A DNA stretch of 25,760 nt. Source: a virus. The notes below the pieces were generated by a model. The model searched no databases, was not told where the DNA came from, and was given only the letters and a program-made list of their open reading frames with translations. Position numbers and translations under genes: made by a program. Location: IMG/VR virus record IMGVR_UViG_3300025769_000738, positions 1 to 25,760 of that record. One strand, 5' to 3'. Below, piece after piece: positions 1,493-14,355 of the stretch. How positions within the stretch are numbered: the first letter of the stretch is position 1; every line of letters starts with the position of its first letter.

Positions 1493-2783
1493 CTAATCCA
1501 TGTTGGACACGTTGGTCGCCCTGACAATCCCTATATTTTTAGTCTCATAAACTTTCGACCATGAAGCAACAGTTTCCAACACAGTTCTTGTTGGGTTTAC
1601 TGTTGAAACAGCGTATTTAAGACCTACAGGATGATAGATGTAGTGGAGATCCACAGCCATTGCTTCTTCTAAAGCAAGAATGTCTCTATCTGTTTGTGTT
1701 CTGATTGGTGCCTGCTCACCTGTGACAACTGCTCCTTCTGTAAAAAAGAACGTACTGAATTCCGTTGAAGCACCAGAACCTGTTGTTGGAACATCATCCG
1801 AAACAATAATTCTAAGACCTCCAAATGTTTCAACAACATTAGGGCCATCAAATGCTCTGACTGTGCTACCACCTGTCGCTCCTGTGTCGGGTGCGCCTGT
1901 GTTGTCGTAGATGCGATCAATCATATTTCGCTCTAACAAATCTCCATAGACGTTGGAGTGCATCGCAACTGTTGTTAGTTTTGATCCTTGATCTCCAAGT
2001 AAAGATTTTGCCTTTGCAATATGACGAGGACTTAATGTTGTTGGAGAATCACCTGATTCTGAATCAATTGTTAAATCAAACAAAGCAGAGTTGCTGTCGT
2101 TTGCATTGATAGAACCAAATGCACCAGTTAAACAGGAGAATAAATCCTTCTGCTTTTGGTTGTTAACATAAGCAGCCATCTTCTGAGCGATAGCAGCCAT
2201 TGGATCTGGGCCACCACCAACTGCAAGTGCGGCTAAATCCCGTGAAGAAAATGCTCGTCCACGATGTAGCACGGCTGCAATCTGGTTGTCAGCTGTGATC
2301 TTTCCAGGTGTTAATGATAATGAATCTGTGAGAACTTCAAAGTCTCCAGATAGGTTTGCTTTGTAGAACACTTTTGTTATCCCGAAAGCTCTTTATCTTT
2401 CGGTTCTACATCTTTGCCATTGATGTAGGTCGGACTATATCTTCAACCCAGAGGGTTGCAAGGCACTCGTGGAAGCATTACTCAGTTTCCTGTCGGCTTC
2501 TAGTCTCTGAACCTTCCAGCTTGTGGACTGGCTTGGCTGCTGATTATCCTTTAATGGTGGACTTCCAGCAATTCACCTTGTTTCATTATGCTGTTGCCAA
2601 CATAAGCCCCAACTACTCTTTAGGGATCTTAACGAAATCTCCTCCACGCTCTGCTGAAAGATTTAATTCTGCCAAAGGTGTTACTACCCCACTCTGTAGG
2701 AAGGCATCTCTATTAGTTGTCTCCTCAATAAGATAGGGCGTGAACACTTCTGGTATTATTAAATCACTGCGCAATGTCGCCAT
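1493..2783 (-). CDS. Major capsid protein, split by a group I intron (join 2783..2622, 2368..1493)
   Basis: Exon 1 (2783-2622, 54 codons) begins MATLRSDLIIPEVFTPYLIE and ends ...GGDFVKIP; exon 2 (2368-1493, 291 codons plus stop) begins FYKANLSGDFEVLTDS. Joined, they give 345 residues with the organisation of HK97-fold capsid proteins: N-terminal arm, then the 'VKIP/FYKANLSG..E.L' strand-turn, 'LTPGKI', 'LHRGRAFSSRDLAALA', and a long E-loop/P-domain remainder. Exon 1 alone meets TAG two codons past the splice point. Exon 2 alone would have to start at a GTG whose G is the intron's last base, and would lack the conserved N-terminus. An in-frame TAA lies three codons before the ATG at 2783, fixing the start. 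No strong Shine-Dalgarno is visible. It lies between scaffold-like and decoration-like genes, as expected. Confidence 0.93.
2369..2621 (-). ncRNA. Group I self-splicing intron in the major capsid gene
   Basis: On the minus strand all four core elements appear in order: P-like AATTGCTGGAAGT (2573-2561), Q-like AATCAGCAGCCAAGC (2545-2531), R-like TTCAGAGACTA (2511-2501) and S AAGATATAGTCC (2443-2432). GACTA in R pairs with TAGTC in S (P7). P1 forms between CCCTAA (2625-2620, spanning the splice site) and TTGGGG (2612-2607), placing the last exon base U opposite G. P2 is an 8-bp helix closed by GCAA (2605-2586). P8 is CAACCC/GGGTTG. Two 7-bp hairpins follow (2428-2406 and 2403-2382). The intron begins after U and ends in G (2369), the group I rule. 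There is no open frame for a homing endonuclease. Subgroup not assigned. Confidence 0.95.
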
Positions 2784-2851: not shown

Positions 2852-3523
2852 TTAACTAGAAACTGCGTTTTTTAACATATTATATTTATTTATATCTGTT
2901 CTATATAATCTAGCCTGCTCAGTTAGGTTGAAAGATTCTCTGGCAAATGGGTTGGCTTCTCCTGTAATTACATCAGCAGTGACTTTAGTTGTTGTAGCCC
3001 CACCTCCCTGTGGTCTTGGGTTTTTCTGTACCCATTGAGGCATTTTCTGTTGCGCCCAATCTTTCACAGGTGTTCTGTTATAACCATCAACAATGACAAC
3101 AGTGCCATCAGCTTCTCTTGCAAGTTGATCTCTGTTTATTCTTGACAAAACATATTGTGGGTCATGTACGACATCAGCTAATGCACTGACAGCAGGGGCT
3201 TCAACTTCAAGCTCTCTTTGTCTTTGCTCAAGCTCTTGAATCCTTTTGTTTTTGGCTGCTTCTTGTTCTCGATACTGAGTTGCAAGTTTTTCTCTTGCCT
3301 CTTCATATTTTCCCTGTGCCTCAAGTTCTTCCTGTTCTTTTTTCTGTTTATATGCAATAAGGGCATTCACATCAACATCCTGTGGAACAGCTTTTGCTGT
3401 CTCTTTTGCTTTTTTATAATCATCTAATAATTCAGCATTTTTCTTTCTCATTGATTCAACTTCTGCTTTCAAAGCATCAACTTCTGCCTGTGAAGGATTT
3501 GGTTTGATTGGTTCGTCTGACAT
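2852..3523 (-). CDS. Capsid scaffolding-like protein
   Basis: The protein has 223 residues. After a short Pro-containing N-terminus, residues about 13-115 form a long, highly charged coiled coil (Glu, Lys, Gln, Arg heptad-like, e.g. ELEQRQRELEVE). The C-terminal half holds a 'DPQYVLSRI' segment and a 'WVQKNPRPQGGG' linker, then 'NPFARESFNLTEQARLYRTD', which recurs in phage scaffold proteins preceding a capsid gene. It would direct assembly of the capsid shell and then leave the prohead. Its position immediately upstream of the major capsid gene is the classic scaffold location. Confidence 0.8.
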   Translation of the reverse strand: MSDEPIKPNPSQAEVDALKAEVESMRKKNAELLDDYKKAKETAKAVPQDVDVNALIAYKQKKEQEELEAQGKYEEAREKLATQYREQEAAKNKRIQELEQRQRELEVEAPAVSALADVVHDPQYVLSRINRDQLAREADGTVVIVDGYNRTPVKDWAQQKMPQWVQKNPRPQGGGATTTKVTADVITGEANPFARESFNLTEQARLYRTDINKYNMLKNAVSS

Positions 3524-11611: not shown

Positions 11612-12924
11612 TGGTAGTATTAAGAAAATATCAAAAAGCAGCAAGCAGTAAATTAACCAGGCTTTGTCAGATCAAGAAATGTGCATATTTAAGTGGTGAA
11701 TGTAGAACAGGCAAAACACTTGTTGCATTATCTGTTGTTAAGAATATGGCACTTGAAAAAGTGTTGGTGATAACTAAGAAAAAGGCAATACCAAGTATAA
11801 AAAGTGATGTTGAGAAGATGAATCTTGAGAGGGTAGTATCCATAACTAACTTTGAACAGTTAAAAAATTTTAAGGGTACAAGCTGGAATATGATCATCGT
11901 TGATGAGGCTCATAGTGTGGGAGCATTTCCAAAACCATCTCAACGATACCAGAATATCTTGCAGCTTAGATATAACAGCATCATTCTGATGAGTGGAACA
12001 CCAAGCCCTGAGAGCTTCAGCCAGCTTTACCATCAATGGTCTTTGACACCTTTTTTATGGAGTAAATATCAGAACTTTTACAGGTGGGCCAGTGATTATG
12101 TTGATATAAAGGAGAAGAGAGTTGGTACTGGTGTTGTTATCAAAGATTATTCAGAAGCAAAGCAAAGCAGAATTTTAAAGGACATTGAACCCTATACAGT
12201 GCAGATGACCCAGAAGGAAGCTGGTTTTACTCAGGAGGTTGAGGAGGAAGTGCATCTTGTGAAGATGTCCAGAAGAACTTACAGGTTAGCTTTGAGGATT
12301 ATAAAAAACGGTGTTATTGGCAGACCTGGAGGAAGATCAGCCGTGGCTGATACAGGGGCAAAGGTAATGAGCAAATTAAGGCAGATTTATAATGGTCATG
12401 TGATTACTGAGAATCATGGTGCTGTTGTATTTGATAAAAGCAAAATTGAATATATAAGAGATAACTTCAGTGGAAGGATTGCCATTTTATATTGTTTTAT
12501 AGCTGAAGGCAAAATGCTCAGAGAAAGTTTTGGTGCTAGGGCAACAGATGATCCAGATATATTTAATGCTGTAAGTGATTCTGTTTTTGTTGGTCAGGTC
12601 AAGAGTTGTCGTGAAGGTGTTAATTTAAGCAGTGCTGATCATCTTATATTTTTAGGAATAGATTATTCTGCATTAAGTTATTTACAGGGCAGGGAAAGAG
12701 CAAGTTTTCTTGGCAGGGATAGAAAGAATAAAATTCATTATATTTTTGCAGAAAAGGGAATTGAGCCAAAAGTTTATCAGGTAGTACAATCAAAGGAAAG
12801 CTATACGATCAAGCATTATAGAAATGACCGAAGCTCAATATCAGAAGAAGCTGATCGACAAGCACGAGAAAGAAGGATGGACAGTTATCAAGTTAATTAT
12901 GTGCAACAAAGCTGGTTTACCTGA
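11611..12924 (+). CDS. SNF2-like DNA helicase
   Basis: The protein has 437 residues. Motif I is a degenerate Walker A 'SGECRTGKT' (about 28-36), motif II 'VDEAH' (about 97-101) and motif III 'LMSGTP'. The C-terminal RecA fold shows 'CREGVNLSSADHLIFLG' and 'YLQGRERASFLGR' with the motif VI arginines. Phage SNF2-type helicases paired with a VRR-NUC nuclease are a common replication or recombination pair. The last 101 nt overlap the nuclease gene in another frame. First gene of the rightward transcript. Confidence 0.9.
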   Translation: MVVLRKYQKAASSKLTRLCQIKKCAYLSGECRTGKTLVALSVVKNMALEKVLVITKKKAIPSIKSDVEKMNLERVVSITNFEQLKNFKGTSWNMIIVDEAHSVGAFPKPSQRYQNILQLRYNSIILMSGTPSPESFSQLYHQWSLTPFLWSKYQNFYRWASDYVDIKEKRVGTGVVIKDYSEAKQSRILKDIEPYTVQMTQKEAGFTQEVEEEVHLVKMSRRTYRLALRIIKNGVIGRPGGRSAVADTGAKVMSKLRQIYNGHVITENHGAVVFDKSKIEYIRDNFSGRIAILYCFIAEGKMLRESFGARATDDPDIFNAVSDSVFVGQVKSCREGVNLSSADHLIFLGIDYSALSYLQGRERASFLGRDRKNKIHYIFAEKGIEPKVYQVVQSKESYTIKHYRNDRSSISEEADRQARERRMDSYQVNYVQQSWFT

Positions 12925-13063
12925 TCTGATATGTATGAAACCAGATGAGGTCAAGTTTATTGAGGTAAAAGGGCCGAAGGGAAGATTAAGTGAAATCCAG
13001 AAATATAGAATTGAGGAGTTGAAGGAGAAAGGATTTGATGTAAAAGTAATGAAACCTTGTTGA
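12824..13063 (+). CDS. VRR-NUC domain nuclease
   Basis: The 79-residue protein 'MTEAQYQKKLIDKHEKEGW' continues with 'NKAGLPDLICMKPDEVKFIEVKG' and 'LSEIQKYRIEELKEKGFDV'. The catalytic pattern is complete: N-terminal Glu (E3), Asp in GLPDL, E-x-K in FIEVKG, and a downstream Gln. Stand-alone phage VRR-NUC proteins are probably Holliday-junction or branched-DNA nucleases. It overlaps the helicase gene by 101 nt, and the -35 box of the next promoter overlaps its stop. Confidence 0.92.
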   Translation: MTEAQYQKKLIDKHEKEGWTVIKLIMCNKAGLPDLICMKPDEVKFIEVKGPKGRLSEIQKYRIEELKEKGFDVKVMKPC

Positions 13064-13404: not shown

Positions 13405-14355
13405 ATTAAAAAACTTAAATTATTAGACACTTTCAGTGGTATAGGAGGATTCTCTTATGGTGCTGAAAAACTTGTTGGCGGTTTTGAAACTACACAATTC
13501 ATTGAAATTGAACCATACTGTCAAAAAGTATTAAAAAAACATTGGCCAAACGTACCCATTCACGATGACATCACAACATTCACAGCAGAGCCTTTTCAAT
13601 TTGACGCAGTTTGCGGAGGATTCCCCTGCCAGGACATCAGCACGGCAGGTCGAGGCAAAGGCATCACGCAAGAAACCAGATCAGGTCTTTTTTACGAACT
13701 CATCAGAGTCATACGCATGGTACGACCAAAATATGTCATCTTGGAAAACGTGGCAGCGATCCTTAATAACGGATTGGACATCGTTCTCGGAGAGCTTTCC
13801 GAAGCAGGGTACAATGCAGAATGGGCAGTTATATCTGCAAGTTCATTGGGAGCCTGTCATCAGAGGGCAAGATGGTGGCTCGTTGCCTACCCCGACAGTT
13901 TGCAACGACTCGATGTATTACGACAAAAGCCCGAAGAAAGACAAGAGACACAGCAAGGGATTGGCAACAGAACTGATGGATCTGCAAATGCTCCCAACAC
14001 CGAGGACAAGGGATTACAAAGGACATCAGAAGGAGGGATATCAGGAGAGAGGATATGGCCCGACCCTTCCAGATATAATCAGACAACTTCCGACACCATC
14101 AGCCAACGAACACAAATACAGTATGAGCAAAGAGGATCATCAATCTGGAACTTGCCTAGCAGCTATGGCAAGAAAGGATCGACTCTCAGCCCCAACTGGC
14201 AAGCCTATGAGTCTAAACCCTGCCTTCGTAGAGGAGATGATGGGTTATCCAATTGGACACACCGCCTGCGAGCATTAGGAAATTCCGTTGTGCCATTATG
14301 TGCTGCTATTCCTTTACAACGTGTTTTGGATTTAGAAAATGAACGACAAGCTTGA
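13405..14355 (+). CDS. C5-cytosine DNA methyltransferase (Dcm-like), AUU start
   Basis: The protein has 316 residues. Motif I 'LLDTFSGIGGFSYGAE' follows almost directly on the start; motif IV 'GGFPCQDIS' carries the catalytic Cys; motif VI 'ILENVAAI', motif VIII 'HQRARWWLVA' and motif X 'LRALGNSVVP' are all intact. Between VIII and X the target-recognition stretch is long, polar and low in hydrophobics, where a second frame (13565-14278) is also open. The enzyme would methylate cytosine in phage DNA, probably against host restriction. The frame is closed upstream by TAA touching ATT 13405, so initiation at ATT or a sequence error must be assumed. Confidence 0.92.
   Translation: MKKLKLLDTFSGIGGFSYGAEKLVGGFETTQFIEIEPYCQKVLKKHWPNVPIHDDITTFTAEPFQFDAVCGGFPCQDISTAGRGKGITQETRSGLFYELIRVIRMVRPKYVILENVAAILNNGLDIVLGELSEAGYNAEWAVISASSLGACHQRARWWLVAYPDSLQRLDVLRQKPEERQETQQGIGNRTDGSANAPNTEDKGLQRTSEGGISGERIWPDPSRYNQTTSDTISQRTQIQYEQRGSSIWNLPSSYGKKGSTLSPNWQAYESKPCLRRGDDGLSNWTHRLRALGNSVVPLCAAIPLQRVLDLENERQA
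13565..14278 (+). CDS. LPTP-repeat protein encoded inside the methyltransferase gene (+1 frame)
   Basis: The 237-residue frame starts at ATG 13565. It contains 'DSPARTSA', 'MSSWKTWQRSL', 'SESFPKQGTMQNGQLY', three 'LPTP' elements ('SLPTPTVCND', 'MLPTPRTRDYKG', 'QLPTPSANEH') and a C-terminal 'LNPAFVEEMMGYPIGHT'. I recognise this as a real family commonly found with phage C5-methyltransferases (SPARTS / SSWRT / LPTPTASD / LNPEWVEWLMGFPIGWT pattern), so this is not a chance frame. Function unknown; possibly an accessory or target-specificity partner. No clear ribosome-binding site precedes it. Confidence 0.75.
   Translation: MTSQHSQQSLFNLTQFAEDSPARTSARQVEAKASRKKPDQVFFTNSSESYAWYDQNMSSWKTWQRSLITDWTSFSESFPKQGTMQNGQLYLQVHWEPVIRGQDGGSLPTPTVCNDSMYYDKSPKKDKRHSKGLATELMDLQMLPTPRTRDYKGHQKEGYQERGYGPTLPDIIRQLPTPSANEHKYSMSKEDHQSGTCLAAMARKDRLSAPTGKPMSLNPAFVEEMMGYPIGHTACEH

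What the first reader, a model, noticed from the sequence alone, without database searches (positions are those of the whole stretch)
2369..2621. Group I intron interrupting the major capsid gene
Seen: P, Q, R and S core elements in order on the minus strand, including AAGATATAGTCC; P7 pairing GACTA/TAGTC; P1 with the splice-site U opposite G; intron preceded by U and ending in G; and exact restoration of a 345-codon capsid frame (...DFVKIP + FYKANLSG...). Known: phage group I introns favour essential, highly conserved genes. A simple gene caller would report an N-terminally truncated capsid starting at a false GTG and miss 54 residues. Introns in cyanophages are best known from psbA, so a capsid location is worth recording.
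Basis: partly seen in the sequence, partly recalled or inferred. Interest (0 to 1): 0.87.

Follow-up and report, generated by a model that had tools for sequence, protein, structure and literature searches.

The report
Self-splicing intron in phage capsid gene
A marine virus of bacteria carries a small self-splicing RNA insert inside the gene for its main shell protein, and close relatives of this insert sit at about seven different places in shell genes of two unrelated groups of sea phages, so an ordinary ribozyme seems to keep reaching new sites without carrying an enzyme of its own.

Summary
Window 2369-2621(-) is a 253-nt group I intron (Rfam RF00028, 80.6 bits, cut-off 50). Removing it restores a 345-aa major head protein (phrog_247) that reads continuously in relatives, including Prochlorococcus phages MED4-117, MED4-184 and P-HS2 (89% identical). 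It is IA-like (P7.1/P7.2) and holds no ORF.

The intron is one of a family. Core scans without gene constraint found about 45 contigs: two sites in this siphovirus capsid gene (codons 17 and 54/55) and three in the unrelated T7-like capsid gene. A wider scan added two single capsid sites and a sister group in nrdB, so the family favours capsid genes but is not confined to them.

Across 31 introns 98.4% of proposed pairs form and 20 of 65 show double-sided changes. The guide strand re-matches the local 5' exon (P1), fully at all sites but one; a short P10 fits exon 2 in all variants but one. Presence is patchy: B needs 8 changes on the capsid tree. In phages with 96.8% identical capsid genes, introns differing at 2 of 224 core positions sit at different sites.

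The ribozyme is ordinary, and capsid-gene introns were already known. The endonuclease-free, multi-site, cross-lineage spread is the interesting part. Splicing itself was not shown.

The parts
2622..2783 (-). Capsid exon 1 (codons 1-54)
   Evidence: Translation of the joined exons; alignment to intronless homologues
2369..2621 (-). Group I intron, 253 nt, no ORF; ends in omega-G at 2369
   Evidence: Rfam hit; same insert in relatives
1493..2368 (-). Capsid exon 2 (codons 55-345 and stop)
   Evidence: phrog_247
2607..2625 (-). P1: exon CCCU (2625-2622) with guide GGGG (2610-2607); splice-site U opposite G
   Evidence: guide and exon change together across sites
2613..2616 (-). Proposed P10 strand GUAG, partner CUAC in exon 2 at 2366-2363
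   Evidence: own-site pairing reached by 3 of 120 permutations
2613..2615 (-). In-frame TAG early in the intron that ends translation of unspliced mRNA
2586..2605 (-). P2 hairpin with GNRA-type loop GCAA
2501..2505 (-). P7 5' strand GACTA (R element)
2472..2500 (-). P7.1 and P7.2, the extra helices between P7 and P3
   Evidence: Covary; two sequence versions
2433..2443 (-). S element AAGATATAGTC with P7 3' strand TAGTC (2437-2433)
2406..2428 (-). P9 hairpin characteristic of the family
2382..2403 (-). P9.1 hairpin
2734..2735 (-). Empty site A (codon 17, phase 1), occupied by the same intron family in relatives
   Evidence: L056, L057, L087, L088, L089, L098, L105
1493..2371 (-). Truncated ORF from a false GTG that spans the 3' splice site (gene-calling artefact)
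   Evidence: same ORF in L231

Best explanation
[quoted passage not shown] It is one copy of a mobile family that spreads horizontally among marine phages, probably those that co-infect the same hosts, and each copy keeps its guide and P10 strand fitted to its own site. Shown: fold, covariation, exact restoration of the exons, patchy presence, several insertion sites. Inferred: splicing itself, and the route of movement, for which I favour DNA exchange during co-infection (recombination or a foreign endonuclease) with exchange of intron cores between sites.
For: Rfam 80.6 bits and 77-89 bits for representatives of all five main sites. Exons restore phrog_247, continuous in isolates and most IMG/VR relatives. 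98.4% of cells paired, 20 of 65 pairs with double-sided changes, covariation 0.211 against 0.086 shuffled and at most 0.075 slid. Guide and 5' exon change together across sites; own-site P10 pairing reached by 3 of 120 permutations. No synonymous variation in codons 55-58 and almost none in 53-54 of intron-bearing alleles, normal variation outside. At least 8 changes of the site-B label on the capsid tree and 8 of intron presence on the T7-like tree. Introns differ by 4-7% where capsid genes differ by 18-22%.
Against: No RNA evidence. L099 has no convincing P10 and site C keeps only three guide pairs. No endonuclease was found to drive homing. Shuffle and Fisher statistics do not allow for relatedness of the sequences.
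Confidence: 0.93

Rival explanations
1. The family reaches new sites by RNA reverse splicing: the excised intron inserts into another target that fits its guide in an mRNA, and the product is copied into DNA and recombined into a genome.
For: Sites A and B share the target CCCU that fits the GGGG guide, lie 113 nt apart in one abundant late mRNA, and carry introns differing at 2 of 224 core positions in phages with 96.8% identical capsid genes. No endonuclease was found.
Against: A reverse-spliced intron would bring its own 5' end along, yet the stretch before the guide is site-specific (AGAUUUUU at A; AAAGnGUAGUU or other forms at B), even in the L056/L082 pair. No reverse transcriptase was sought or seen. 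Guides differ between lineages.
Confidence: 0.2
2. Collaborative homing: a free-standing endonuclease elsewhere in the genome cuts empty capsid sites, and the ORF-less intron is copied in during repair, as for F-CphI and the psbA intron of cyanophage S-PM2.
For: Narrow uniform exon tract around site B in otherwise diverse capsid genes and patchy presence. Precedent in cyanophages.
Against: No homing-type domain in 20 window ORFs or 10 ORFs of T7-like carriers. The uniform tract is very short for co-conversion and equally fits selection on P1 and P10.
Confidence: 0.35
3. Sites A and B are old, separately inherited positions, and their intron cores are kept alike by ectopic gene conversion between introns in co-infecting phages, not by recent jumps.
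For: 5' segments are site-specific while cores mix: A-site introns nest among B-site introns. Two P7.1 versions occur at sites A, B and C.
Against: Patchy presence still demands repeated gains or losses at each site; it does not by itself explain how new sites arise.
Confidence: 0.4
4. The insert is an assembly artefact or a dead capsid gene, or the two ORFs make two peptides that join after translation.
For: Gene finding reports a truncated ORF with its own GTG.
Against: The insert recurs in over 20 contigs and a single-cell genome; exons stay open; compensatory changes keep the ribozyme fold. The GTG codon lies partly inside the intron.
Confidence: 0.02

Closest known systems
Capsid-gene intron of mycobacteriophage LittleE (PMC3706429)
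   Same: Group I-type intron in a major capsid gene, U before the intron and G at its end, continuous in relatives without it; splicing proven there by RT-PCR and protein sequencing
   Different: About 819 nt with an endonuclease ORF, one site, unrelated host; here about 250 nt, no ORF, and several sites in two capsid families
psbA intron of cyanophage S-PM2 with the free-standing endonuclease F-CphI (PMC6083498, PMC5931967)
   Same: Group I intron in a marine cyanophage gene; intron with stops in frame; mobility by a separate enzyme is a candidate here
   Different: Photosynthesis gene, a known neighbouring endonuclease; none found here and a different gene
IA-type phage introns (T4 td and nrdB from general knowledge; Pf-WMP3 DNA polymerase intron, PMC3428280)
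   Same: Core architecture with P7.1/P7.2 between P7 and P3
   Different: The named Pf-WMP3 intron encodes an HNH endonuclease in a polymerase gene; this family has no ORF
rDNA introns at several sites taken as evidence for reverse splicing (PMC1299323, PMC3984707)
   Same: Closely related group I introns at different positions of one gene
   Different: Nuclear rRNA genes of fungi; here protein genes of DNA phages, with site-specific 5' segments

Membership tests
Group I intron | Match to the group I covariance model above the curated cut-off | tested here: met
   80.6 bits against 50
Group I intron | P3/P7 pseudoknotted core with P4-P6 and P8 | tested here: met
   All pairs form in 31 introns for P3, P4, P7 and P8; P2, P6a, P7.1, P8 and P9 covary, P3, P4 and P7 themselves are almost invariant
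Group I intron | U at the end of exon 1 opposite G in P1, and G as last intron base | tested here: met
   true at all sites A to E
Group I intron | Removal restores the host reading frame | tested here: met
Group I intron | Guanosine-dependent self-splicing of RNA | not testable with these tools
   Needs in vitro transcription or RT-PCR
Subgroup IA | Extra helices P7.1 and P7.2 between P7 and P3 | tested here: met
   Three of five P7.1 pairs and one P7.2 pair change on both sides; subgroup definition from PMC3984707 and general knowledge, no subgroup model was run
Endonuclease-encoding mobile group I intron | Homing endonuclease ORF inside the intron | tested here: not met
   253 nt with stops in the exon frame; no family member in alignment A1 exceeds 274 nt
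Collaborative homing system | Free-standing endonuclease that cuts the empty site | tested here: inconclusive
   No homing-type Pfam domain in the ORFs scanned; the contigs may be incomplete and cutting cannot be tested

The most novel reading that the evidence does not exclude
An endonuclease-free ribozyme lineage that is concentrated in highly expressed phage capsid genes and reaches new sites within one gene and across unrelated phage lineages by an RNA-guided or ectopic-conversion route, giving natural DNA-phage evidence for group I intron transposition of a kind so far cited mainly from rDNA.
Probability: 0.3. Interest if true: 0.8.

Novelty: new member of a known kind. Interest (0 to 1): 0.57.

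Why it matters
Major capsid genes serve as marker genes for marine phages, and ordinary gene calling truncates these copies. The family also supplies many natural alleles with and without the intron, and pairs of nearly identical introns at different sites of one gene. [quoted passage not shown] Short ORF-less introns in phage capsid genes would make that question easier to test.

Tried and rejected
I first concluded that the family lives only in capsid genes, because the core scan gave 34 stretches, all capsid. I dropped that after a scan for the P9 hairpin found a sister group in the ribonucleotide reductase beta gene (phrog_6799) and introns in other genes. A P4-P6 scan also hit more distant introns in other genes (RNR-like and dUTPase-like by eye), many beside HNH-like ORFs. 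No isolate phage holds a close copy of the intron; the best are partial matches of 70-84%. The S-EIVl relative of the multi-intron gene shows no intron at Rfam's threshold. One looser core pattern added nothing. I did not build a covariance model of my own because of its length limit and used nhmmer instead. Structure prediction was not needed.

Full report
What is there. Rfam's group I intron model matches the minus strand at 2631-2406 with 80.6 bits (cut-off 50) and is the only Rfam hit in the window. The intron proper is 2369-2621, fixed by comparison with intronless genes. Joining 2783-2622 to 2368-1493 gives a 345-aa protein that matches phrog_247, major head protein, E 7e-82. The ORF finder instead reports a truncated 292-aa ORF from a false GTG at 2371.

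Homologues. Isolated Prochlorococcus phages MED4-117, MED4-184 and P-HS2 have this capsid protein at 89% identity without interruption. In IMG/VR, 75 of 81 loci (the window's own locus included) read through the junction, and five contigs carry the insert, or its 3' end, at the same place. Two of the 75, L056 and L057, have the same kind of intron at codon 17 instead, 113 nt upstream (site A).

Family. DNA scans for parts of the intron, with no gene constraint, returned 27, 27 and 34 stretches, all in major capsid genes as judged from the flanking reading frames. In the siphovirus gene these are site A (codon 17, phase 1; 8 contigs) and site B (codon 54/55, phase 0; about 23 contigs with the window and L231). 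In the T7-like gene (phrog_267; nearest isolate Prochlorococcus phage P-SCSP2, 95%, intronless) they are site C (LFL^KVF), D (AA^YHT) and E (DEL^KNH). A scan for the P9 hairpin added members at C and D, one further T7-like capsid contig with its own site (L233), one site in a divergent phrog_247-type gene (L247), a sister group in the ribonucleotide reductase beta gene, and a gene of unknown product with three introns in L244. The family favours capsid genes but is not confined to them.

Structure. On 31 distinct introns from sites A to E, a model of 12 named helices including the P3/P7 pseudoknot pairs in 98.4% of cells. Twenty of 65 pairs have double-sided changes; the covariation score is 0.211, against 0.086 in shuffles and at most 0.075 when the partners are slid. 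P2, P5, P6a, P7.1, P7.2, P8, P9 and P9.1 each hold at least one such pair; P3, P4 and P7 are nearly invariant and so neither support nor oppose. P7.1/P7.2 point to subgroup IA. Rfam recognises representatives of all five sites.

Fit to the site. Exon 1 ends in U at every site, and the guide changes with it: CCCU/GGGG at A and B, UCCU/GGGA in L099, GCCU/GGGC at D, GCUU/GAGC at E; site C keeps three pairs. The stretch between splice site and guide can pair with the start of exon 2: AGAU/AUCU (A), GUAG/CUAC or UAGA/UCUA (B), ACUUUA/UAAAGU (C), UGAU/AUCA (D), UGAUU/AAUCA (E). Own-site pairing is reached by 3 of 120 permutations of the sites. L099 lacks a convincing P10. All introns in this set have a stop in the exon frame within about 40 nt, which would end translation before the ribozyme core.

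Footprint in the exons. Among 14 complete site-B alleles, the share of differing synonymous codons is 0.07, 0 and 0 for codons 53-54, 55-56 and 57-58, against 0.52, 0.50 and 0.35 in 66 intronless alleles; codons 45-52 and 59-62 vary normally. TTCTACAAAGCA follows the site in 14 of 14 intron alleles and 9 of 55 intronless ones; TCCCT precedes it in 13 of 14 and 3 of 55 (the Fisher values ignore relatedness). This fits selection on P1 and P10, or a narrow target or conversion tract.

Mobility. On the siphovirus capsid tree the site-B label needs 8 changes, all forced by well-supported branches, and site A needs 3; L056 (A), L082 (B) and L038 (none) form one tight group. On the T7-like tree intron presence needs 8 changes. 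Introns differ by 4-7% where the capsid genes differ by 18-22%, with no significant correlation. The L056 and L082 introns differ at 2 of 224 core positions although they sit at different sites, and A-site introns nest among B-site introns. Yet the 5' segment stays site-specific. That speaks against a simple recent reverse splicing of the whole intron, and for exchange of cores between resident introns or quick re-fitting of the 5' end. Two P7.1 versions (GAAGC/GCUUC and CUCC/GGAG) occur at sites A, B and C, which also suggests exchange.

Endonuclease. There is none inside the intron. No homing-type domain was found in 20 window ORFs or 10 ORFs of T7-like carriers. A small VRR-NUC nuclease ORF at 12824-13063 is present but is not known as a homing enzyme. 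The window is a 25.8-kb virus record that may be incomplete, so a free-standing enzyme is not excluded.

Known and new. Introns in phage capsid genes are known: LittleE, with proven splicing and an endonuclease ORF, and Tuc2009 as cited in the same paper (PMC3706429). Cyanophage introns are known in psbA, with collaborative homing by F-CphI (PMC6083498, PMC5931967). I found no paper in the held library on introns in marine phage capsid genes, but most subscription papers are not held.

Limits. Splicing is inferred, not shown. The host is inferred from isolate relatives; one near-identical phage contig sits in an alphaproteobacterial single-cell genome, by infection or contamination. Pattern scans need exact matches and miss divergent members, so the tallies of sites and genes are lower bounds.

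Noticed in passing
L231 (CACGZD010000010.1), intron at about 3042-3288: A near-identical phage with the intron at site B lies in a contig of an alphaproteobacterial single-cell genome (AG-426-I04), so the host may not be a cyanobacterium, or the cell sample carried a free phage.
   Followed up: partly
L244:7514-8591; also L238, L242, L248: A gene of unknown product, related to an unannotated stretch of Synechococcus phage S-EIVl downstream of its terminase gene, carries three group I introns in L244; L238, L242 and L248 also show several intron matches.
   Followed up: partly
L234, L235, L237, L240, L252, L257, L259, L262: A sister group of the intron interrupts the ribonucleotide reductase beta gene (phrog_6799) at ISRD^EQIH.
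   Followed up: partly
KJ410740.1:60784-61545 (L263:5782-6543): In Synechococcus phage S-EIVl the annotated hypothetical ORF lies on the opposite strand to the protein match (61003-61503 +), so the true gene appears to be missed in the record.
   Followed up: partly
L065, L068, L096, L100: 5' end of the intron: Their site-B 5' segment CGTCTAGATTGGGGG contains CTAGATT, which resembles the site-A exon-intron border CCCTAGATTTTTGGGG; it may be a trace of a move between sites.
   Followed up: no
window 13565-14355(+): Two long overlapping ORFs in different frames; one (13717-14355) matches part of a C-5 cytosine methylase, the other has no Pfam match, which suggests a frameshifted or split methylase gene.
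   Followed up: no
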